Origin: Ahaetulla prasina | Taxonomy: Eukaryota > Chordata > Lepidosauria > Squamata > Colubridae | Direction of reading: 5' to 3' | DNA length: 64,000 bases | Assembly: GCF_028640845.1 (NCBI RefSeq) | Contig: NC_080540.1 | Coordinates: forward strand, 164,319,252 to 164,383,251 | Part shown: positions 1-56,405 of the stretch, one piece after another | Layout of the letters: every line of letters starts with the position of its first letter | Position numbering within the stretch: position 1 is the first letter of the stretch | Program-made: the position numbers and the translations under genes | Notes under the pieces: model-generated | Told to the model about the DNA's origin: nothing | What the model saw: only the letters and a program-made list of their open reading frames with translations | The model's database searches: none

Positions 1-502
1 CTCTGAGTGAAAGAGAATAGCGAAGAGTGGCTGGATAGCAGAAGATTGCCCCAGGGGCTCTGCTTTCTTATGCAGAGTCTCGGAGGGGTGCCTGCTTAAT
101 CCAGCCCTACTCCAGACTCGGCTCAATCCTGCTAATTAGGCAGGACAAGAGGAAGACGCCCACCTCTGCTCCATTGATTCCGTTTTGAATAACTAAAAGC
201 AGACGGGACAAATACAAGTGATCGATTACTGGGGAAGCAAGAAGAGAGCTGACTTCTACTTCTTTTTTAAAAAAGGGGAAAACTTTTTCTCACTTTAACT
301 TAGTGAAGGAAGAAATGGCGTCTGAGAGGAAGTGGATTGGAGGCTGATTGTGAGAGAAAGGAAGTTCGTCTTTGTGGATTTTGGCTGAATAGAAGCTCTC
401 CATAGAAGGCAAGGTGAAAGTTTTTATTTTACAACTTTAATTTGAGACTTTTTGAGACGTTGAGATTTTACAATTCTAATTAGAGACTTTACTTAAATTA
501 AA

Positions 503-1575
503 ATGGCTTCTAAGCCACCAAAAGCTCCCATGACGAGAAGGGGGTCTGAAACTAACTTAGAAGATATGTTAAAGGAACAGAACAGAGTTTCTGAAGAGCG
601 ATTTAAAGAAATTAGGATTAATATTCATGGTGTGAAGGATCAACTTAGGGAAGAAATTAAAGAGACTAATAAAAAAATTAGAGAAGATTTATTGATGGTT
701 TTTCAAGGTTTGGCAAAAAATTTGGAAGTAATGGAGGATAAAGTGGAAGTAATTAGTCAAGCAAATCAGTATTTGGATAATAAAGTTGGAGAGCTCCAAA
801 ATAAAGTGGATAAAAATGAGGACCATGTGGTGGTATTGCAATATAGAGCGTTGGAGAAGGCTTTGAGAATTAGGGGTCTTCAAGACTGGAAGGAAGAAGA
901 TCTTTAAAAAGTTATATCAGAAGCCTTAGCTGAAATGTTAGGAATGGACTCTCGAGAACTTGATTTTCAAATTGATATGGCATATAGGGTTAATTCTTGG
1001 GTAGCGAGGCAGAAAAAGCTCCCAAGAGACATTGTAATTTATTTTTTGACTTCTACAATAAGAAATCAGATTTTGCAAGCTACATACCAAAAGAAATTGC
1101 AAATAGCAGAACAGGAGGTATTGGTTTTGAAAGAGATCCCTGCTAAAATGTTAAAGGATAGAAGGGATTTTAGGTTTTTTACACAAGAGCTTAAGAAGCA
1201 TCAGATTCAATATAGATGGGAGGTTCCAATTGGCTTAACAGTATTTTTTCAAGGCAGGAGATATCGAATTGATCTGAGTTGAAAGCAAAAGATTTTCTTT
1301 TTAATGTATTGAAAGTGGATGTAGAAACAGTGGATAAAAGTCTTCAAGAGAAACAGAGTGGGAAAGCTGAAACTGCACCTGTGATGTCAGTACCTCAAGA
1401 ACAACCTCAAGAACAAAGAGTGACAAGGGGAGCTATTAGGCGTAAGGAGATAGAGGAACGACTTCAAAGACAGGAACGGGATTCCACTACTGAAGCTATG
1501 GGAGGAGCCAAGCCGAAGAGTGAGAGTCTTCAGCTAATTGCTCAGAAGCTTCAAGAGGCCAGTGATGGCAAATAA
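503..1575 (+). pseudogene. L1 ORF1 (RNA-binding protein), broken
   Basis: ORF1p is the coiled-coil RNA chaperone that packages L1 RNA in the cytoplasm. The reading starts at ATG 503. Residues from about 20 to 110 are rich in Glu, Lys and Leu with heptad-like spacing, as expected for the coiled coil. A stop (TAA, 905-907) interrupts the frame, which then continues in the same frame from about 935 to the TGA at 1280-1282. The C-terminal part continues in another frame to 1575, so there is also a frameshift near 1270-1285. The RRM-like middle region falls at about 860-1260. ORF1 ends 11 nt inside the start of ORF2. Confidence 0.85.
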
Positions 1576-4500
1576 ATTTTTGACATGGAATGTTAATGGT
1601 TTAAATTCAGCACAGAAAAGAAGAAAAATATTCCATTATTTGAAACAATTTAAAAATGATGTGATATGTTTGCAAGAGACACATATAAAATTATCAGATC
1701 AGAAATATTTGATTAATTCGAAATTAGGTAAACATTTTGTTTCTTCTGCTCCGAATAAGAAAAATGGTATAGTTATATATTTGAAGAAAAATATATCAGC
1801 TAAATTAATTGAAACGGACATTCAAGGAAGATATATTGCTATTGAATTGATTTTAGAAGGAAAAAAGACACTTGTGATTGGCATATATGCACCTAATCAA
1901 CAACAAGAAAAATTTTATAAACTGTTACATGAAAAATTGACTCTTTGGGACTATAAAACATTTATTATATTAGGGGATTGGAATGGTGTAATGGATATTA
2001 GAAAAGATAAAAGAACTCTTTCTAAGAAAATTCCTATGCATGCAAAACTGCCTAAATCTTTTTTTGATTTGATGGAAGATTTTGAGTTGAAAGATATATG
2101 GAGAAGGCAGAATTTTGATGATAGAGATTATACTTATTTTTCGGATAGGCATCAATCTTTTTCACGTATTGATTTAATATTAATTACCAATGACTTGCTT
2201 TCTAGGGTTAGGAAAACAAAGATATTTCCAAGGTGTTTAACTGATCATAGTCCAGTATGGATGGAGTTGCACTATGAAGGTGGAAGAAGATCATGGAGAA
2301 TAAATGAAAATTTGTTTAGATATGAGGATAATGTAAATCAATGTAAAAAACAAATGAAAGAATTTTTTGATTATAATTTGGGTAAGGGAACTTCGATAGA
2401 AATGGTGTGGGACGCTAGCAAGGCCTTTATGAGAGGAAAATTGATATATATTAATAGTAGACAGAGGAGAAAATTACAAAAACAGCTTAGGGATTTAGAA
2501 GAGGAAATTCAGAGGAAACAACAATTATTGGTATATAATCCACATGATTTAAAAACTACTGAGGCGATAAAGATATTACAGAGTCAATTTAATATGTTAA
2601 TGGCAGATCAGGTGGCAACCAATATACAATATGCTAAACATAATACTTTTTGTAATGCCAATAAATCAGGGAGGTGGTTGGCTTATATGTTAAGGAAAAG
2701 ACAGAAAGCATGTACTATTGAAAGAATTGAATACAAGGGTAAAGTGCGGTTTCAACAGGATAAAATTAAAAAAGCTTTCTTGGAATATTATACAAATTTA
2801 TATGCCAGAGATACAATATTGAATATGGATATTGATAAATATTTGAAAGAATATAAGGTTAAAGGTTTAACTAATGAACAAAGGGAAGAGTTGAATCGGC
2901 CTATAACTTCTGAGGAAATTATTTGGGTAATAAAGCAATTAAAAATAGGGAAATCCCCGGGCATAAATGGACTTACAGCAATATATTATAAAAAGTTACA
3001 GGATGAGATAGTTGGTCCACTTATGGAGTTATTTAATCAGATACTGATGGGAGGAGGAGTGCCACCATCATGGAGGACTACTTTTATTTCATTGATACCA
3101 AAAGAGGATCAGGATTGTACTAAGCCTGGGAATTATAGACCGATTTCACTCTTGAATAATGATTATAAGATTTTTGCGAAAATAATGGCAAATAGGTTAA
3201 TGGAAATTGTACAACAAAGGATTCACACTGACCAGTCTGGTTTTATAAAAGGGAGACAAATGAGGAATAACGTTAGGCAGATAGTGAATTTATTGGAATA
3301 TTTGGAAAAGAAAAATCAGATTCCGGCAGCGTTTATATTCTTGGATGCAGAGAAAGCTTTTGAACGTTTGCATTGGGAATTTTTATTTAAATTAACAAAC
3401 AAAATGCAATTTGGAAATGGTTTTATACGAATACTTAGGGCAATTTATGGAGAGCAAACAGCTCAGATAATAATTAATGGTAGTTTGACAGATAGTTTTA
3501 AAATTGCGAAAGGAACAAGGGCAGGGGTGTCCTTTATCACCTTTATTGTTTATTTTGTCTTTGGAACCTTTATTGGATAAGATAAGAGAGTTAAGGGAGA
3601 TAGAGGGTATTAGAATTAGAAGACATGAATACAAAGTCAGAGCATTTGCAGATGATCTGGTTGTTATATTGACTCAGCCTATAAATTCGAGTGTATATTT
3701 GTTGGAAGTAATTAATCAATATGGAAGGGTCTCAGGGTTTAAAGTGAATCAAAATAAAACAAAAGTGTTAACCAAAAATATGATTAAGAACCAGAAAGAA
3801 AAACTAGAGGAAATAACAGGATTTGAAATTGTAAAAAAGGTTAAATATTTAGGAGTCTTTCTTACTTCATCAAATGTAAAATTGTATAAGAATAATTATG
3901 ATGTGTTATGGAAAAAAATTCAGAAGAAAATGAATACTTGGAAAAAATTACAATTATCTTTGTTGGGGAGAATAGCAGCTATAAAAATGAATGTTTTGCC
4001 TAAATTCTTGTTCTTGTTTCAGATGATACCAATAATTAAGAAAGATAAAAATTTGGAAGAATGGCAGATTGGAATTAATAAATTTATATGGGAAGGGAAA
4101 AAAGCGAGAGTCAAAATGAAAATAATGCAAGATACACGGGAAAAAGGAGGATTAAAAATGCCTAATTTAAAACTGTATTATGAAGCAGTTGTTCTTTCGG
4201 TAATAAGTGATTGGTTTAATTTGACGGAGGAAAGGATTTTGAATATAGAAGGTTATGTTTTATTATATGATTGGCATGCATATTTATTGTATGATAAGAA
4301 AGTAGATAAAGCTTTTAAGAATCATGTGTTGAGAATTTCTCTTCTGGAAAAAATATTATTATAAGTTAAATTATAAAATTCCTATATGGGCAAGTCCTCG
4401 GCACGCAGTAGAGAATATAAATATAGAACAGGAACAAGAAATGATTACTTATAAAGATCTTTTATACAATGAGAGGGGAAATTTACAACTAAAATCTTTG

Positions 4501-5310
4501 GATACATTAAAAGAAGAAGGGAGGAATTATACTTGGTTTCAATATGGACAGTTAAAGGCTAGATGGAAAGAAGATCAGAAAATTGGTATTATTCAAAATG
4601 AAGAAAATTTGGTTAAACAAATTAGAAATCAAACCCAGGGGCATATAAAGAGATTGTATACTGTGTTGATAGAAATAGATTCTGAAAGAGATTTAATAAA
4701 GGACTATATGATAAAATGGGCACAGAATATTCAAGAACCAATAATGTTGGAAACATGGGAAAAAATTTGGGTTAGAAATGTTAAATTTACACAAGCGCAG
4801 AATTTAAGGGAAAATTTTTATAAGATGTTTTATAGATGGCATTTAGATCCTAAGAAATTATCATGTATGTATCCAGATATGCAAGCGAAATGTTGGAGAT
4901 GTAATTGTGATGATGCTACATATTTTCATGTATGGTGGACTTGTAAGAAAATTAAGTCTTTCTGGATAAGAATCTGGTGGATTATGCAGAACGTTCTGAA
5001 GAAGAAGCTAAAGTTCCTACCGCAATTTTTTCTTTTGGGAATAACAACGGACTGTACAGTGATTGAGACTAAGTTGATTTTGAACTTAATAACAGCAGCA
5101 AGACTGTTGATTGGACAATATTGGAAGAAAAAAGAATTACCCACAATAGAAGAATGGATATTGAAAGTTTCCAATTTGGCTGAGATGGCTAAAATCTCAG
5201 CCTTCTTGAAAGACAGTACTCAAGAAAGATATTTAAATGAATGGAAGAATTGGATTGACTATATTCAAAATAGATATCAGATTAAGAAATTTCGGATTGC
5301 CTTTGAATGA
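1565..5310 (+). pseudogene. L1 ORF2 (endonuclease / reverse transcriptase), broken
   Basis: ORF2p nicks target DNA and reverse-transcribes L1 RNA. I chose ATG 1565 because the protein then opens MANKFLTWNVNGLN, the usual start of the APE endonuclease; the longer open frame upstream is not needed. The endonuclease spans about 1565-2290 (LQETH, GDWNG and TDHSPVW motifs). Reverse-transcriptase blocks follow: NYRPISLLN near 3130, QSGFIKGRQ near 3233 and FLDAEKAFE near 3340. A frameshift near 3515-3530 splits the conserved QGCPLSPLLF block; FADD, the catalytic box, is in the new frame near 3646. A stop at 4362-4364 and a further frame change precede the C-terminal Cys/His-rich segment (CWRC ... 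HVWWTCKK) near 4890-4950. The frame ends at 5310. Confidence 0.9.
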
Positions 5311-9339: not shown

Positions 9340-9664
9340 GTGCTCTTATGCACGCCCCTTATAGACCTCTTTTCCTTTTTTTTTAAGACCCAGGAAATCT
9401 TGGCTCCTCTTCCATCCTTTAGTTCCACAAATCGAACATGAATCTCCTCCAATAAGGGGTGTGGGGGGGGGAGAAATATCTGAAAGCGAAAGGGAAATGA
9501 ACCATCTTCCCGCGCGCGCCCTTTTGTTCTGCAGGGCTCCTTTCCTTGCCGCGCTGCAAAATCAGGCCCGATAACAAAGAGGGAGTGGCATTTCGATCCT
9601 CCTCCCCCCAACCCTTCGCTAAGCGCCCCACTAGCCCCCGCACCCCAGGAACTGAAAAGCGACC
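9340..9664 (+). promoter_or_regulatory. Probable promoter / 5' UTR of the PYD-DD gene
   Basis: GC content and CpG frequency rise from about 9400 towards the start codon (for example CCCGCGCGCGCCC near 9510), unlike the AT-rich flanks. No clear TATA box is seen. The start site is unknown; this is inferred from composition and position only. Confidence 0.4.
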
Positions 9665-9962
9665 ATGGACGAGAGAGAGAGATTGCTCGGAATCCTTGAG
9701 GAGCTGCCAGACAAAGAGCTGAAGGCGTTTGCTTTTTTATTGCCCGACGCCATCCCGCGCGGGAAACGCAACGCCGACTCGCGGGTGGATCTAGCGAAAG
9801 TGCTCCTGCAATACTACCCCGAAAATGCCTTAGATGTCCTCGCCGAGGTGTTAAACAAAATCCCGAGGAAAGATCTCGTCTTGCAACTTCAGGGCGAACC
9901 GAGACGGGGGGGTTCTCGCTATCCTAGGACCGAAGAAGAAAGGGAAAAGGCGGCAGCGGCGG
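9665..9962 (+). CDS. PYD-DD gene, exon 1 (pyrin-like domain)
   Basis: Encodes residues 1-99 plus one base of codon 100. The donor G|GTAAGC is at 9963. Without splicing the frame stops after three more codons, so splicing is needed to reach the death domain. Confidence 0.82.
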
Positions 9963-12916
9963 GTAAGCAATAAAGGCGGTCGAGCAGCCGCGCACCGCGC
10001 TCGCTGGCTTGAGATCCGTAGAAACCGAAAGTTGCTTTTCCTGGAACTGCATGTAGGATTATCCAGGATAACAGGACACGTAGCAATGATCACCTCGGCC
10101 CAATTGCCCATGCTTTAAAAAGACAGCAAAGAAGAACGTAGCTGCATGCTGCGGGCCAGGGAAAAAAACATTTTTAAAAAATGTATCGATCATCTACTGT
10201 CCTGTATTTACTTCGAAGTGCCCCTGCTGTCACGGAATCGCAATTTGGAGACCGGTTGCGTTTTTCAAGGCAAATCAACGCAGGAATCGAAAGGCTTTCA
10301 AATATTCTTGAGTTCTTTAAAATAATCCAGAACGATTGAGATGTAGGCAGAACACAGCTTGGGATGGGAATGGGGAGACAGAAGAGAGACTGGGGAAAAG
10401 TGCAGAAATTAGTGTGAATTACGGTTGGTTGCAAGATCTGCATTTAAACCTATCACTATTACTAGCAATAACCTAGTTGTCCTTTCTAGTTATAACTAAA
10501 TGAGAATTCCAAAGAAAAAGAGAGAGGGTACAATTTTTTAAATAATAAAGCAGATAATAAAAGGATGGAAAGAGAAAATACAGAATAATGTTTGTTAATA
10601 TAGATCAGGGTACACATAGGAGAGAATATATCTCAATGTTGAACTGACACTCCCCTCCACACCCCATCAGCGTTCCCCAATCTTGACAACTTCACAATAT
10701 GTGGCATTTTGGGAGTTAAAGTCTATACATTATAAAGTTTCCAAGAATGAAAAACGCTGATGTACATTCTATTTTTTTAATGAATAGTTAAACTGGCCAC
10801 ATTGAACTAAGAAAAAAGCCTTGATCCATGAGTCGAGCCAGGTTATTATGGGTTTGCTGCTTATTGAGATTGCTGGTTGATTAAAATTTATCAACAGTTT
10901 TAGGGGCAAATTAGCAAATGAGTTGGAGGGCACAATGTAGTTCATGATACCATAGCTATGTTTTCTTGGATAACAATCACTCACATTTTTTCCCAAGTTA
11001 AAAAGCATATAGTATAGCCTTATTAACGATGTGTTTCATCAATAAATAGAGGTTGAGTGATTAAGCCAAAGGTTTTGCAGAACAGATGAGCTTTGAAGAA
11101 AAAGATAGATGTAAATAAAATCCACTGAGCATACAGTGTGTTTAGGCTGAGTTGATGCAGCACCAAAAATAGATAGGATGAAGGCAAAAGCACTTCAAAT
11201 GCTTAAGTTGTAGATGCTGCAAAGTCTGATCTTCCCCAAAGAGCTGCAGTCTGGGTAGAACTAACATGGCAAATCTGCCAGTAAGAAGAATTTGCATTGT
11301 CTTTGATGGAAGAAATGAGCGAAGTTGTGGTGCACCTGAGCCAGGTGCCATCTGATGTAGCAGACCTAAAGCAAGGTTTTCTTCTGCTATCCTTTATAGT
11401 TGAGCCCAACCTCTCAAGATTCCAGAACAGCAAAGAAGTGACAACTGCTCTTGATTTGGGGGTTATTAAGAGTGTGGGTGTTTTAAAAACACATGAATTG
11501 TGATTGACTCTTTTGACTAGCAAAATTAGGACTCAAAAATTAGTCCTTGTATTTTCTGAAAAGCCCACAGCTTGCAAATAAATCCATGAGGCTTATTCAT
11601 GCATAATATTTTTATAGTGTTACTAAACAATCCATGACCCATTGGCTCATTCTTTTTACATATAATATATAGGCTTTATTTCCTCTCCCCACATGATCCT
11701 CAAGAGAGCCCTAGTGAAGCTGCCTCCTCCACCTCCTCAGCTGACCCACAGAACTGTCTGCCACTTTGCTGGGAGATGGGTAATTTCCCTAACAGATTCC
11801 TTAATGCTTCTATAGTAGCAGAGTTTCTATTGTACTGCCTTCACTAGAAAAGTTCTTAAAAATTCAGATATTCAAAAATGTATCTGCCTGGAAAGTGTCC
11901 CTATTCCACAATTAAACATCAGGAGCTGAGCAGAGGAAATGTTTTATGACATTTTCTTTTATGTCATAAAATACTTTATGATAATTTTTGTCATAACTTG
12001 TTCTATAAATTTGTTAGATTTCGGTTCCACCGGAGTCATGGGTGCTGCGCTTTGGATGCACATTCTGTAATGAAGCCCATTTGTGGTACCTTGTTTCAAA
12101 AGGTTTTACCCTATGGTGCATTGTTTCACCCAATTGTGAGTTACAGACACAAAGGTTTGAGTAATAAACAGATACAAGGCCCATGATTGTAATCAGCCAC
12201 TAGCCATTACACAGCTTGTGGTATATGTGTTTGTGCCTTCAAATCTGGACTCGGCCTGGACAAGTTCATACAGTTTTCTTGGCAATGTTTACCCAAGTAA
12301 TTTTCATTTTTTTCTTCCTAAGCCTGAGAGAGAAGTTCATGTAGGTGGTTTCATGTCTAACAACTAGAACTCAGTCTCCCGGTTTCTAGCATGATGCATT
12401 TAAGCACTACACCAAACTGACTCTCATGTGGTTTTTACAATTTATCAATTTTTTTATAAAGCTTGTTATGGGGGAACATATCTAAATATCCAGAGTCCAC
12501 ATCCTGTATAATAAAATCCCCAAATTAAAATAATTTAACCATAAAATCCCTGCTTTTATAGTTTCCTAGGAATACAGCAAGCAGATGGCGATATTTTTCT
12601 TTATTCTATTTGTCCCATAAAAAGTAGATCATAATCCAGCACTTTTTATGACCCTAACCATCATCATATAATCTTACATGATGACCTGCGTGTTACGGTA
12701 GGAACATTGTAATATTAAATCCTTGAACAGATTTTAGGCAAGTACAGGTAGTCGTCAGTTAATGACCTCCTCATTCAGTGGTGCTGAACAAGTGGTAGTA
12801 ACAACTGCTTCTTGGCAACCTTGCAGCGTCCCACAATCTTGTGATTGCCATTTCTAATCTTCTCTGCTTGCTTTCGAACCTTCCCCAAAGTCAGTGGCAG
12901 AGCCAGGAGGGAAAGT

Positions 12917-12947
<31 letters not shown>

Positions 12948-13739
12948 CATTTATACCCCGCCCTTCTCCGAAGACTCAGGGCGGCTTACAGTGTATAAGG
13001 CAATAGTCTCATTCTATTTGTATATTTTTTACAAAGTCAACTTATTGCCCCCCCAACAATCTGGGTCCTCATTTTACCTACCTTATAAAGGATGGAAGGC
13101 TGAGTCAACCTTGGGCCGGGCTTGAACCTGCAGTAATTGCAGGCTTTGTGTTCTTAATAACAGGCCTTACCAGCCTGAGCTATCCGGCCCCTTGCAAGTA
13201 ACCTGGCTACTTGCCAGTTCTAAGCACTAAAGCACTAAAGCCAGTTGCAAGTAACCTGGCTACTTGCCATTTCTAAGCACTAAAGTCATGTGATGTGTAC
13301 TTTACAGTTGCATTGCTTAGCAACAGAAATTCCTATCCCAACTATTGTTGTTAAGTGAGGGCTACCTGTATGATATTAGAGATAATAAAGGAAAGAGGTG
13401 TCAGCTCATCTCTTTTACATCTGTAAATTTTCTCTTACCCTCTTCTGTCATTTTTCAGCACCATCCAAGCTGGTTTCACAAGAACAGCTGATGAAACTAG
13501 CCCGGAAAATGGGCAAGAACTGGAAGGAGATTGGCATTTTGTTCCTGGGTATGGAAATGTCACGTCTGGAGCAGTTTGAAGAGGAGCATTCTAAAAACAT
13601 GGTCATGCAGATTTTCTCCATGCTGTTGGACTGGAGGAATCGTGAAAAGAACAAGGCCACTGCACGCCACCTGTATAACATTCTCAACCAGGAAGGGGTA
13701 GAACTTGACGTCAGTGCCTATGCTTTTCTTTTAGAGTAA
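9665..13739 (+). CDS. Two-exon pyrin-domain/death-domain adaptor-like protein
   Basis: Joining 9665-9962 to 13459-13739 gives 579 nt, or 192 aa. Seen: exon 1 ends at a consensus GTAAGC donor in phase 1, and exon 2 starts after a pyrimidine-rich TTTTTCAG acceptor; the joined codon is GCA and the frame stays open to a TAA at 13737-13739. Residues about 5-78 look like a pyrin domain: LLGILEELPDKELKAFAFLL, then IPRGK, then RVDLAKVLLQYYPENALDVL and IPRKDLVLQL. Residues about 104-185 look like a death domain: KMGKNWKEIGILFLG, a helix-3 region RLEQFEEEH, and LLDWRNREKNKATARHLYNIL. The linker (79-103) is short and charged. No signal peptide or membrane segment is seen, so it is probably cytosolic. 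Known: these folds assemble by self-association in inflammasome and death-receptor signalling. Inferred: a PYD-to-DD bridging adaptor. FADD also has two exons (DED, then DD), so a diverged FADD relative is possible, but the first domain fits PYD better. The ATG sits in a good context (GACCATGG). Confidence 0.8.
10668..10759. mobile_element. hAT MITE, decayed
   Basis: A diverged copy of the 8701/8988 family (CAGCGTTCCCCAATCTTGAC ... AACGCTG) in intron 1 of the PYD-DD gene. No clear target duplication remains. Confidence 0.6.
10760..12744. other. PYD-DD intron 1, middle part
   Basis: Mostly unassigned AT-rich sequence. A minus-strand open frame of 106 codons (11523-11203) overlaps a plus-strand frame of 68 codons (11297-11503); neither shows a domain I recognise. 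No splice-compatible extra exon is evident. Confidence 0.4.
12745..13368. mobile_element. Tigger-like (pogo/mariner) MITE, interrupted by a SINE
   Basis: It begins TA|CAGGTAGTCGTCAGTTAATG and ends GTTAAGTGAGGGCTACCTG|TA, with TA on both sides as in Tc1/mariner-type insertion. A minus-strand SINE sits inside it at 12917-13192. Related copies are at 15090, 19034, 45438, 51571, 54831 and 59621. Confidence 0.65.
12917..13192 (-). mobile_element. tRNA-derived SINE (AGCTCAGGC family)
   Basis: On the minus strand: tRNA-like head (ATAGCTCAGGC A box, GGTTCAAGCCC B box), body with CTCATTTTACC complement, and a tail with the GCCCTGAGTCTTCGGAGAAGGGCGGGGTATAAA stem followed by (CAA)n. The tail resembles the LINE tails at 8600 and 47150, the likely source of its reverse transcriptase. 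Copies are at 20789 and 52274. Confidence 0.8.
13459..13739 (+). CDS. PYD-DD gene, exon 2 (death domain)
   Basis: Completes codon 100 and encodes the death domain to the stop. The acceptor is TCTGTCATTTTTCAG|CA. The C-terminus (ELDVSAYAFLLE) follows the last predicted helix directly, so there is little tail. Confidence 0.82.
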
Positions 13740-14702: not shown

Positions 14703-15089
14703 ATCATCAATCAGTTCACACTTCATTCACTGACAGTGTTATAAAGAAGGGAAATGAAACATTTTGAAACCAAACTCGGAGAGAACCCAGTAATACTTAC
14801 CTCTCTAATCACAGACTGCATGTCCTTTTAAATGCATGTCATTGGTTTCCCATCCCTTTCCAGTACAAACTCCTGAGACGGGGCCAAATACTGTGCTAAG
14901 TTGGTGCAATGCTGTTTGTTCATCTGCAATTTGATACAATCCATGATTTTATTATGTCTGATTGCATTACCTTTTTTTTTTTTTGCTGTGGCCATTAAAT
15001 GAATCACATGGTCCTTAAGCAAATCCAGCTTCTCCCATTAACTTTGCTGTGGGAAGCCTTCTAGGAATGTCATAAATGGCAATCATGTA

Positions 15090-15273
15090 ACCCCTCCTGG
15101 ATGCTGCAAATATAGGAAATAAATGCTTGTCAAGTACCCGAATTTTGATCATGGCGTAGTGGGGATGCTGCAATGGTCACAAGTGTAACGACTGGTCATA
15201 AGTCAAGTTGTCAGCACTGTTGTAATTGAATGGTTGTTAAACAAATGATTGTAAGTCAAGGACTACCTGTACT
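15090..15273. mobile_element. Tigger-like MITE, right half
   Basis: Contains GGGGATGCTGCAATGGTCAC and ends GTAAGTCAAGGACTACCTGTA, matching the right half of the copies at 19034 and 59621. Confidence 0.7.
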
Positions 15274-17494: not shown

Positions 17495-17668
17495 CTATAG
17501 ATCTCTGCCAAGCCTCTCAATTTCATCAAGGAAGAAATCTAGGTCATCCCTGGTGACTGCTGGATTGGTGACCACCTGGCGGAAAAAGTTCACCTTTTTG
17601 CCATGTGGCTGATAGCCCACCAACATGGAACCTTTCTTCATCATCCGCTCCTTAATCAGTGGAGCTAC
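17495..17668 (-). CDS. CSAD: CSAD coding exon 14 (last)
   Basis: Residues 437-493 and the TAG stop (17497-17495). Acceptor TTGATTAG|GTAGCTCC. Carries [16 protein letters not shown] and the C-terminus LGRDL. Confidence 0.95.
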
Positions 17669-29600: not shown

Positions 29601-32600
29601 ACCTTCCCACCAAAAGTGGTCCCTATTTTTCTACTTGCATTTTTATGTGCTTTCGAACTGCTAGGCTGGCAGAAGCTGGGACAAGTAATGGGAGCTCACC
29701 CCGTTACACGGCACTAGGGATTCAAACCGATGAACTGCCGACCTTTCAATCGACAAGCTCAGCGTCTTAGCCACTGAGCCACCGCATCCCTTTATATGGC
29801 CCAGTCAATAGGATCTGATACATATGGTCACATCTGCCTGAATTTCATTTCATTCATGTATAACTCTTTGATAAAGGAAGCATAAGCTATTGCATTAGCA
29901 CACTGTTTCTTCACTTGCTGCACACCTCAGACAAAGAGTCAGAGTTTGCAAAGCCCCTATGCCTATTGTGTGTCTCTTTTAGCAGGATCACTGGCTTAGA
30001 TGTGGGAAGAAAATGCATCCTGTTACATATAGCTTGGTGGGAGCAAAGGGAAAATTGTAACCTCCCTCAAACCCCTCCACAGGCAACATACCTCTGATTT
30101 GGCCTGGTTGATCTTTTCCTCTAGATCAGCGGGGATCATTTTCCCTCTGAGGAAGAAAAGAGTGATTGAAATGACTGAGCCATTCAGCAGGTCCTTTCAA
30201 CTAGTCCCGCTTGCTTAAACCACACTGACTTTAAGTCATTCCAAGCAGGCGGGAGAATGAAGCTATGTGTTTTCACTTTGGTAATATAGAAGGACCTTTC
30301 ACTTTGAACCTACCTGTCAGGGTTCCAAGGAACACCCCCAATGAAATAAAGCTCTGAGGCTTGAGGTTCCTCAAAATTCCAATTTATTAGAGATGTCATG
30401 TTGGCACAGCTGGGAAAACCTGAAACTGAAAGCTTCCAGGTTTTCCACACCCAGTGGACAGTTCACATCCCTGCCCCACACCTACAAGTTCATCACATTG
30501 TCCAATCAACTCTTCACACTCAATTGGATACAATCTTCTGGCAGTCTCCATCAGGATGTCCTTGAATACATAATGTTGTTATGACTAACTTTCTACCGCT
30601 CCAACAACAAACCCCTCCCAACTTCCCCAGCTAAAATATGTGACAGTTAAGAAGCAAAAAACAAAATTGCCTTCCAAAACTGACACCACCTCTACTGCAA
30701 ATTAGATCAGAGGAAAAGGTTCCGCGTTAGCCTTATGTGAAGCATTAGGATTTGTTTTTTTACCGCAGGAAGATTTTTCCTTATAATAAGATCTGTTTCA
30801 TGCACACTGAAATAATATGATTGTCGTGTCCCACTCCTCCGCTGACGGCCAGGTCAGGGAAATCCGAATCAGGCTCGCCTCTGCAGCTCTGCCCAAAGTC
30901 CTAGCAAAGTCCTCAGAGCAGGCAGGAGACCAGAAAGTGACTTCAGCAAGATAAGTTCGACTTTGCCTGACTCAGAGACTGCCAGAAAGCAGATCCTTTA
31001 TATAGGCCATGGGGTGTGGCTCCATGACTCAGCACTCATTAAGGCCTGCCCCTCCCTTCCTTCTGTTGCCTCCGCCTATCCAGTCTTCTGATGCGAGGGT
31101 CACTCCAATCAGCAGCTGTTGGAAATAAACTTTCCTCAGGCTCACATGCTGTGGAGGAGGGGGAGGGGTCTAGCTGCTCCGTTTGCCTGGGCATGGAGCC
31201 AGGGCTGGGGCCGGGGGATGCTCCCTCCTCTGCAGCCTGCTTGGGCATGGAGCCAGGGCTGGGACCGGGAGGTGCCCCCTCCTCTTCAGCTTGTCTGGGC
31301 ATGGAGCCAGGACTGGGGCCAGGAGGCATACATTCCTCCGTGTTCGGGAGCAGATAAGAAGGCCCTGGCTGCTGTGAGAGCGGACAAGACACAACAATGA
31401 TCTAGAATAGGCTCCCCAACCTGTGGGCCATGAGGGGTTTGCAACTGGGCTGTGGAAATGGCTGGTGAGTGCACGTGCACACACCTGCTGTTTCAAGTAG
31501 TTTAATCGTAAGAAAGACCCATAACAAGCCATCATTACAGGTATATATCTACATATGACAAGAACTGGAAATACCTCACAGGAGCAGCTGAAGATAGCCC
31601 CTCAAGAGGCAAGGAATACATCTCAAACTAATCCTGCCAAGACTGCAGACATAACCACTGTAACATCTTCATTTTTTCATTAAAGCACATACATGTGCAC
31701 TCCAGTGGTGGGTTTCAAAAATTTTTACTATCGCTTCTGTGGGTGTGGCTTGGTGGGCAGGTCATGGCTTGGTGGGCGTGCTTGGTGGGCATGGCAAGGG
31801 AAGGATACTGCAAAATCCCCATTCCCTCCCAATCAGCTGGGACTCGGGAGTCAGAGACTAGATGGGGGTGGGGCTGGTTCTCTGAACTACTCAAAATTTC
31901 CACTACCAGTTCTCCAGAACTGGTCAGAATCTGCTGAAACCCATCTCTGATGCGCTCCAGTTTCATGAGTGGTAAGCACGCGCACGCACCACTCGTAGAA
32001 ATGGAGCTGCACATGCACACACGCACTTGTCAGTTGCTTGCGCAAACCATCGCCTTCCCCACCCAGCAGTGCACAAAGCTGGAAACATTGGGGAACGTCT
32101 GATCTAGAAGAAACTCTTTCATATGAAACCTGCTATTTATGCAGACCAATCATGATAAAGAATGAGAACTAGATCCAAGACTTGCCATAGATCTGCTTAG
32201 GTGCTCTTTCTTTGGTGCTCTGTTTTATCATACATTGAAAGTTCCTATACAAAGTGATGTTTCAATCTTAGTTCTTACTATGTCCTCAATAATTGCGCCA
32301 CCAGTTAGAAACTACAGCTGATGGAGAAAACACTCTCTTGCAATCTTAAGGGCTCGAAACCCAAACTTACTTAAAATAAATATTCTTAGCAGGTTGAATT
32401 CCACAGGTATAAATAAGTTGAACTATGTAAACATGAAACTGAAAACCCAGAGTTCAGATTAAGAGATTGTAATTTTTTAGACCATAATTTCTGCAGGGGC
32501 AAAGGGTTTCTAAAATCGGGGGTGGGAGGGAACAATTGAACAATGGGATATGCAATTCACAGTGGTTCTGATAGCTGTGTTGAGTACGGTTAGGAAGATA

Positions 32601-56028: not shown

Positions 56029-56405
56029 TGTCAGGGTTCCAAGGAACACCCCCAACAAAATAAAACTCTGAGGCTTGAGGTTCCTCAAAGTTCCAATTTA
56101 TTAGAGATGTCATGTTGGCACAGCTGGGAAAACCCGAAACTGAAAGCTTCCAGGTTTTCCACACCCAGTGGACAGTTCACAGCCCTGCCCCACACCCACA
56201 AGTTCATCACATTGTCCAATCAACTCTTCACACTCAATTGGATACAATCTTCAGGCAGTCTCCATCAGACGCAGAATGTCCTTGAATATGGAATGTTGTT
56301 ATGACTAACTTTCTACCGCTCCAAAAACAACCCCCTCCCAACTTCCCCAGCTAAAATATGTGGCAGTTAAGAAGCAAAAAAGAAAATTGCCTTTCAAAAC
56401 TGACA
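56029..56405 (-). mobile_element. Solo LTR-like element (TGTCAG...CTGACA)
   Basis: Complete 377-bp copy, very close to 30315-30685. Flanks GATAA and GATAT resemble a 5-bp duplication with one change. Confidence 0.7.

What the first reader, a model, noticed from the sequence alone, without database searches (positions are those of the whole stretch)
9665..13739. Candidate PYD-DD adaptor gene beside CSAD
Two exons join in frame at consensus splice sites into a 192-residue protein with a pyrin-like domain followed by a death domain and almost nothing else. Established: ASC pairs PYD with CARD, and FADD pairs DED with DD; these short adaptors link sensors to effectors by like-with-like assembly. 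I know of no mammalian PYD-DD adaptor, and I recall no such gene beside CSAD in human. If real, it could connect NLRP-type sensors to death-domain partners (FADD, RIPK1 or TRADD type), which would be a lineage-specific link between inflammasome and cell-death signalling.
Basis: partly seen in the sequence, partly recalled or inferred. Interest (0 to 1): 0.85.

Follow-up and report, generated by a model that had tools for sequence, protein, structure and literature searches.

The report
Unrecognised pyrin–death-domain adaptor in vertebrates
A vine-snake gene beside the likely CSAD gene encodes a small protein made of a pyrin domain and a death domain, a pairing also found in lizards, a turtle, amphibians and coelacanth, and it is predicted to act as an adaptor that would likely link cell-death signals to inflammatory enzymes.

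Summary
Exons 9665-9962 and 13459-13739 join at GT/AG sites into 192 residues identical to a database protein of Ahaetulla prasina named 'FAS-associated death domain protein-like'. Pfam finds PYRIN (57.1 bits, cut-off 22.9) and Death (43.7, 22.6); DED scores 34.5 of 35.9. The gene is not snake-specific: the listings show PYD-DD in 31 named species, namely snakes, lizards, a turtle, caecilians, salamanders and coelacanth. In 30 aligned proteins, PYRIN and Death match 30 of 30. Both domains are conserved while the linker drifted (median pairwise identity 46% and 56% against 15%). Teleosts carry a relative with a similar death domain behind a CARD, so the N-terminal domain was apparently exchanged. 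The gene is annotated under conflicting borrowed names; I saw no description in the listings of nine paper searches. Most likely mechanism, inferred: the DD docks on an upstream DD platform, as in FADD and CRADD, and the PYD nucleates a PYD effector such as ASC or caspase-15. Partners, expression and function were not tested.

The parts
9665..9962 (+). Exon 1 coding part: residues 1-99 and the first base of codon 100; carries the PYD
   Evidence: matches P0001 residues 1-100 by tblastn
9680..9880 (+). Pyrin domain (residues 6-72)
9963..13458 (+). Intron, 3496 bases, phase 1, GT/AG
13459..13739 (+). Exon 2 coding part with stop codon TAA; carries the DD
   Evidence: matches P0001 residues 99-192 by tblastn
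13482..13697 (+). Death domain (residues 108-179)
9500..10249 (.). CpG-rich stretch over exon 1, possible promoter
   Evidence: CpG observed/expected 1.07 and 1.15 in the two 500-base windows, against 0.38 for the whole window
11705..11779 (+). Possible alternative linker exon (25 codons, in frame), homologous to a linker segment of Erythrolamprus isoforms; use in this species not shown
   Evidence: tblastn match of P0009 residues 109-134 at 11680-11763, E 0.004; open frame between AG and GT, one of three acceptors that fit
17495..17668 (-). C-terminal exon of the neighbouring decarboxylase, best read as CSAD; other exon pieces recognised up to about 36 kb

Best explanation
This is a conserved two-exon gene whose 192-residue product consists of an N-terminal pyrin domain and a C-terminal death domain, and it is predicted to work as a death-fold adaptor whose DD would dock on an activated DD platform while its PYD likely nucleates PYD-bearing effectors. 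Shown: gene structure, both domains, their joint presence in 31 named lobe-finned vertebrates, and a teleost relative with a similar DD behind a CARD. Inferred: the DD is the input side, because it is the part kept between teleosts and tetrapods and because FADD (DED-DD) and CRADD (CARD-DD) use their C-terminal DD towards the receptor or PIDD1 and their N-terminal domain towards a caspase (established knowledge). Inferred: the PYD is the output side, recruiting ASC (hence caspase-1) or the PYD caspase, caspase-15, whose homotypic PYD partner is reported as untested (PMC12292325). DED proteins are also possible, since human inflammasome PYDs and DISC DEDs nucleate each other (PMC13012725).
For: Domain calls: 30 of 30 aligned orthologues match PYRIN and Death at E<=1e-3. 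Profile A4 hits PDB PYDs (NLRP6, pyrin, NLRP4 and others) with one half and THOC1, FADD, RIPK1, ankyrin and CRADD DDs with the other; no DED is among the 60 rows shown of 92. The AlphaFold2 model gives two helical bundles joined by a linker of pLDDT under 50, residues 77-101. Conservation: PYD 46%, DD 56%, linker 15% median pairwise identity, as expected if both domains are used and the linker is only a tether. Swap: profile comparison of 30 PYD-DD with 16 teleost proteins aligns only from the last helix of the first domain through linker and DD, E 2e-31. CARD is matched in 15 of 16 teleost proteins, and the teleost model's N-terminal fold is closest to NOD1 and ARC CARDs. DD scores: PYD-DD against teleost CARD-DD median 70 bits; teleost against FADD 42.6, CRADD 24.8, THOC1 0 (only these three references, given as shorter segments). 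ASC self-assembly residues: E13 is acidic in 26 of 30, R41 is R or K in 24 of 30, K21 is K or R in 21 of 30 (roles from passages of PMC7830601 and PMC4917984). FADD itself is reported as well conserved in all vertebrates (PMC12119088, passage), so this gene is probably an addition and not a renamed FADD.
Against: No interaction, expression or localisation data. Other ASC residues are not kept: D48 acidic in 0 of 30, K26 as K or R in 0 of 30 (6 His), Q79 in 0 of 30, D51 acidic in 15 of 30, so ASC may not be the partner. The first domain has a DED-like side: DED reaches 34.5 of 35.9 bits in the window's protein and passes the cut-off in 1 of 28 proteins scanned singly (Pituophis, 36.1), the precomputed annotation lists DED beside PYRIN for P0001 and other advanced snakes, and caspase-8 and cFLIP DEDs appear weakly for the snake sequence (E 0.013-0.7). 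The snake PYD lacks about six residues in the helix 2-3 region against lacertid lizards, and the salamander PYDs are only 28% and 35% identical to the snake's. Fold scores of 12-13 for helical bundles are, by the tool's note, not decisive. Which DD is closest is not stable: THOC1 leads with the snake sequence and with profile A4, FADD with the coelacanth sequence and the teleost profile. The DD tree does not place the three reference DDs and does not recover PYD-DD as one clade. The direction of signalling rests on analogy, and whether snakes have caspase-15 was not checked.
Confidence: 0.5

Rival explanations
1. Reverse wiring: an NLRP-type sensor would bind the PYD and the free DD would recruit FADD, RIPK1 or TRADD, turning an inflammasome sensor into an apoptosis or NF-kB signal.
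For: The PYD is closer to NLRP and pyrin PYDs than to ASC by profile (NLRP6 52, pyrin 50.7, best ASC chain 38.3 bits). The DD fold is tied with RIPK1, FADD and TRADD DDs.
Against: The part kept between teleosts and tetrapods is the DD, the exchanged part is the N-terminal domain. That is easier to read as a constant input with a changed effector, though the reverse is not excluded. FADD and CRADD use the opposite direction.
Confidence: 0.25
2. Dampener: the protein would cap PYD or DD assemblies in the way PYD-only and CARD-only proteins do, without passing a signal on.
For: Small size, no enzyme domain found, and incomplete conservation of the ASC interface residues (D48 and K26 absent).
Against: Two conserved domains joined by a tether in 30 of 30 aligned orthologues favour bridging; a single-domain decoy would not need both.
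Confidence: 0.15
3. It is simply FADD (or ASC), as the databases label it, with a diverged N-terminal domain.
For: [quoted passage not shown] Pfam DED at E<=1e-3 in 17 of 30, above its cut-off in 1 of 28 scanned singly, and listed in the precomputed annotation of several snakes.
Confidence: 0.05
4. Annotation artefact or pseudogene: two unrelated exons joined by gene prediction.
For: No RNA reads were seen here; most database entries are predictions.
Against: The same joint architecture is listed in 31 named species. Domain-specific conservation with a drifting linker; CpG-rich first exon; consensus splice sites.
Confidence: 0.03

Closest known systems
FADD (DED-DD adaptor of the DISC)
   Same: About 200 residues, N-terminal death-fold domain, short linker, C-terminal DD; FADD DD is the best PDB match of the coelacanth DD and of the teleost profile
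   Different: N-terminal domain is PYD rather than DED; DD about 20% identical to FADD DD in structural alignment
CRADD/RAIDD (CARD-DD adaptor of the PIDDosome)
   Same: Same order of domains; the RAIDD DD crystal structure is the top Foldseek hit of the model. The teleost relatives share the CARD-DD architecture
   Different: PYD instead of CARD in lobe-finned species. The teleost DD is closer to PYD-DD than to CRADD (medians 70 against 24.8 bits; the CRADD row was a shorter segment)
ASC/PYCARD (PYD-CARD adaptor of inflammasomes)
   Same: N-terminal PYD, size, flexible linker; ASC residues E13, K21 and R41 mostly kept
   Different: C-terminal DD instead of CARD; no CARD match among 30 of 30; D48 and K26 not kept
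zgc:174906 family of teleosts (CARD-DD proteins)
   Same: Homologous DD and linker region, E 2e-31 by profile comparison; the coelacanth PYD-DD protein carries the same database name
   Different: N-terminal CARD, matched in 15 of 16
Caspase-15 and zebrafish caspy/caspy2 (PYD caspases)
   Same: Possible effectors: they carry the same type of N-terminal PYD (PMC12292325, passages)
   Different: They are proteases, not adaptors; no link to this gene was tested

Membership tests
FADD | N-terminal DED | tested here: not met
   DED 34.5 bits, below its cut-off 35.9, while PYRIN 57.1. Across 28 proteins scanned singly PYRIN outscores DED in 28, and DED passes its cut-off in 1 (Pituophis 36.1, PYRIN 61.0). 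Precomputed annotation does list DED for P0001
FADD | C-terminal DD | tested here: met
   PF00531 43.7 bits; 30 of 30 at E<=1e-3
FADD | Binds Fas/death receptors and caspase-8 | not testable with these tools
   Needs bench work
CRADD | N-terminal CARD followed by DD | tested here: not met
   No CARD match at E<=1e-3 among 30 PYD-DD proteins; met in 15 of 16 teleost relatives
ASC/PYCARD | N-terminal PYD | tested here: met
ASC/PYCARD | C-terminal CARD | tested here: not met
   C-terminal domain is Death; no CARD match
Bipartite death-fold adaptors (kind, not family) | Two death-fold domains joined by a linker, nothing enzymatic | tested here: met
   Pfam and model: PYD 1-76, linker 77-101 (pLDDT under 50), DD 107-191
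Bipartite death-fold adaptors (kind, not family) | Bridges two partners by homotypic assembly | not testable with these tools
   Needs binding or speck assays
PYD-DD / teleost CARD-DD family (proposed here) | Shared DD, closer to each other than to FADD, CRADD or THOC1 | tested here: met
   against three reference segments only; the tree does not resolve the reference rows
PYD-DD / teleost CARD-DD family (proposed here) | Conserved position beside CSAD in teleosts, coelacanth and turtles | not tested
   No vertebrate genome besides the window was reached (genome search unanswered; the other collections are viral, metagenomic or prokaryotic by their descriptions)

The most novel reading that the evidence does not exclude
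An overlooked vertebrate adaptor family, at least as old as lobe-finned fishes and not named among human tandem death-fold types, keeps one death domain as its input and has exchanged its output domain, PYD in coelacanth and tetrapods, CARD in teleosts; in reptiles it is the missing activator of the PYD caspase, caspase-15, wiring death-domain receptors directly to inflammasome-type PYD filaments.
Probability: 0.2. Interest if true: 0.85.

Novelty: new variant of a known kind. Interest (0 to 1): 0.62.

Why it matters
The known two-domain death-fold adaptors FADD, CRADD and ASC pair DED-DD, CARD-DD and PYD-CARD. A conserved PYD-DD protein fills an empty cell of that table. It would give reptiles and amphibians a direct connector between death-domain signalling and PYD filaments. 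It also offers a candidate partner for caspase-15, whose PYD interaction is reported as untested, and the PYD/CARD exchange between lobe-finned and teleost relatives would be a natural experiment on how signalling adaptors are rewired. Practically, orthologues are labelled FADD-like or ASC in reptile annotations, which can mislead comparative work on cell death.

Tried and rejected
FADD or ASC under another name: rejected on domain identity (see membership tests), with the DED-like side of the snake PYD told there. Chance or artefact: rejected on 31-species conservation. THOC1 as the parent of the DD: THOC1 leads with the snake sequence and with profile A4 but falls behind FADD, CRADD and RIPK1 with the coelacanth sequence, so no parent is claimed. 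A DD tree was run to place the family among FADD, CRADD and THOC1; the reference rows were too long-branched and PYD-DD needed three label changes, so it supports only the teleost CARD-DD clade (96/100) and some groupings of near species. The neighbour as GADL1 rather than CSAD: three exon pieces favoured GADL1, seven pieces CSAD. Two minus-strand frames near 15 kb and one near 16.3 kb (by order) were scanned as possible genes: two had no Pfam match at E<=0.1, one a weak dual-specificity phosphatase match at 0.011, below its cut-off; not pursued. Families missing from lists of fold hits were not used as evidence.

Rows left out of alignment A4 among the PYD-DD hits: isoforms, partials and one-domain entries (P0003, P0008, P0009, P0011, P0014, P0018-P0020, P0029, P0031, P0039, P0044, P0046, P0047). 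P0029 (Eublepharis) has a PYD but its predicted C-terminus does not match Death. A5 took 16 of the teleost rows listed. P0032, a teleost protein, was inside query A3, so the ranks of teleost rows there are inflated; (query without teleosts) is the independent hit. One search scored only the 7997 candidates sharing most words. One search listed 120 of 224 hits, so weaker hits were not seen; I saw no mammal, bird, crocodile or frog named among the 120, but absence there was not tested directly. In one search, 20 residue positions were compared with ASC; the report names seven of them, and the others are mixed (for example E80 is D in 30 of 30, while at E62 proline stands in 27).

Paper searches (open-licence PubMed Central only): searches gave 0 papers ('PYD-DD' with the two domain names; 'zgc 174906'). 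Searches gave listings in which I saw no description of a PYD-DD protein, but the papers listed were not read through. One search was for ASC residues. Papers seen as passages only: PMC12292325, PMC12119088, PMC8564539, PMC4917984, PMC7830601, PMC9978379, PMC2779465, PMC13012725, PMC7156525, PMC12436146, PMC3196919.
Full report
What was checked. The donor after 9962 and the acceptor before 13459 fit consensus, the intron is in phase 1, and the joined frame is open for 192 codons. The product is identical over its full length to a predicted protein of the Asian vine snake Ahaetulla prasina, named there 'FAS-associated death domain protein-like', so the window very likely comes from that species. 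Exon 1 sits in a CpG-rich stretch (observed/expected 1.07 and 1.15 in the 500-base windows from 9500 and 9750, against 0.38 for the whole window).

How far it is conserved. Three protein searches list the joint architecture in 31 named species: 11 snakes, 14 lizards (lacertids, agamids, a phrynosomatid, skinks and geckos; group names recalled), the turtle Chelydra serpentina, two caecilians, two salamanders and the coelacanth. In the 30 proteins aligned as A4 (29 named, one from an unnamed source), PYRIN and Death match 30 of 30, DED 17 of 30 at E<=1e-3. Median pairwise identity is 46% in the PYD, 56% in the DD and 15% in the linker, whose length runs from 18 to 89 residues; the salamander PYDs are the most diverged, 28% and 35% identical to the snake's. 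This pattern is what two used domains on a tether would give, although without DNA of the relatives dN/dS could not be computed. Database names of orthologues disagree (FADD-like, ASC, ankyrin-3-like, uncharacterised), which suggests that the gene is predicted but not understood.

The teleost relative. The best hits without a PYD are teleost proteins, many called zgc:174906, with Death in 16 of 16 and CARD in 15 of 16 scanned. Profile-profile comparison aligns only from the last helix of the first domain through linker and DD, E 2e-31, 34% identity. In pairwise scores the teleost DD is closer to the PYD-DD proteins (median 70 bits over 480 pairs, 51.6-89) than to FADD (42.6), CRADD (24.8) or THOC1 (0); these three references were shorter segments, which lowers their scores somewhat. 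The A1 profile, made of snakes and lacertids only, already reached two teleost proteins at 87 bits. The teleost model's N-terminal bundle is closest to NOD1 and ARC CARDs, while its DD was modelled poorly (pLDDT 41-56). I read this as one family in which the N-terminal domain was exchanged. Which state is older cannot be said, because gars, bichirs, sharks and lungfish were not seen in the part of the list shown and the DD tree is unresolved.

How it probably works. Shown: two conserved death-fold domains on a tether. Established knowledge: FADD and CRADD, with the same order of domains, use the C-terminal DD towards a receptor or PIDD1 and the N-terminal domain towards a caspase. Inferred: here the DD takes the input and the PYD seeds a PYD effector. 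Candidates are ASC with caspase-1, or caspase-15, which has a PYD, occurs in the green anole, is a degenerated remnant in humans, and whose homotypic interaction is untested according to PMC12292325 (passages); its presence in snakes was not checked. [quoted passage not shown] ASC's interface residues are partly kept: E13 acidic 26 of 30, K21 as K or R 21 of 30, R41 as R or K 24 of 30, D51 acidic 15 of 30, but D48 acidic 0 of 30, K26 as K or R 0 of 30 and Q79 0 of 30. So binding to PYDs is plausible while binding to ASC itself is uncertain.

Comparison and novelty. [quoted passage not shown] PYD-DD is not named, though the wording does not close the list. FADD is reported as well conserved in all vertebrates (PMC12119088, passage), so this gene is probably not the reptile FADD. 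In nine of my ten answered paper searches (the tenth was for ASC residues) I saw no description of it in the listings; the library holds open-licence papers only. In amphioxus, unusual combinations of death-fold domains are known, such as DED in place of PYD in ASC homologues (PMC3196919, passages). So new pairings are a known kind of event; this pairing, conserved through lobe-finned vertebrates, is the new part.

Limits. No RNA, binding or cell data; no vertebrate genome besides the window could be searched (genome search was busy at eleven calls). Synteny with CSAD in other species, and absence from mammals, birds, crocodiles and frogs, were not tested.

Noticed in passing
window 11680-11779: The intron holds a stretch homologous to an extra linker segment of Erythrolamprus reginae isoforms (E 0.004); here it is open in frame between AG and GT, so a third, alternative linker exon is possible.
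   Followed up: partly
window 500-5300: Long open frames on the plus strand look like an L1-type LINE (recognised from memory, not searched), and frames at about 7.8-8.4 and 46-47 kb look like part of another retroelement.
   Followed up: no
window 14900-15200, minus strand: Two adjoining frames with protein-like sequence, one with a weak dual-specificity phosphatase match (E 0.011, below cut-off); possibly a decayed copy of a gene.
   Followed up: partly
window 30399-30575 and 56113-56133, minus strand: A near-identical frame (VFPAVPT segment and its upstream part) occurs twice, suggesting a repeat family around the neighbouring decarboxylase gene.
   Followed up: no
database proteins P0001-P0044: Orthologues of one gene carry at least three misleading names (FADD-like, ASC, ankyrin-3-like).
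   Followed up: yes
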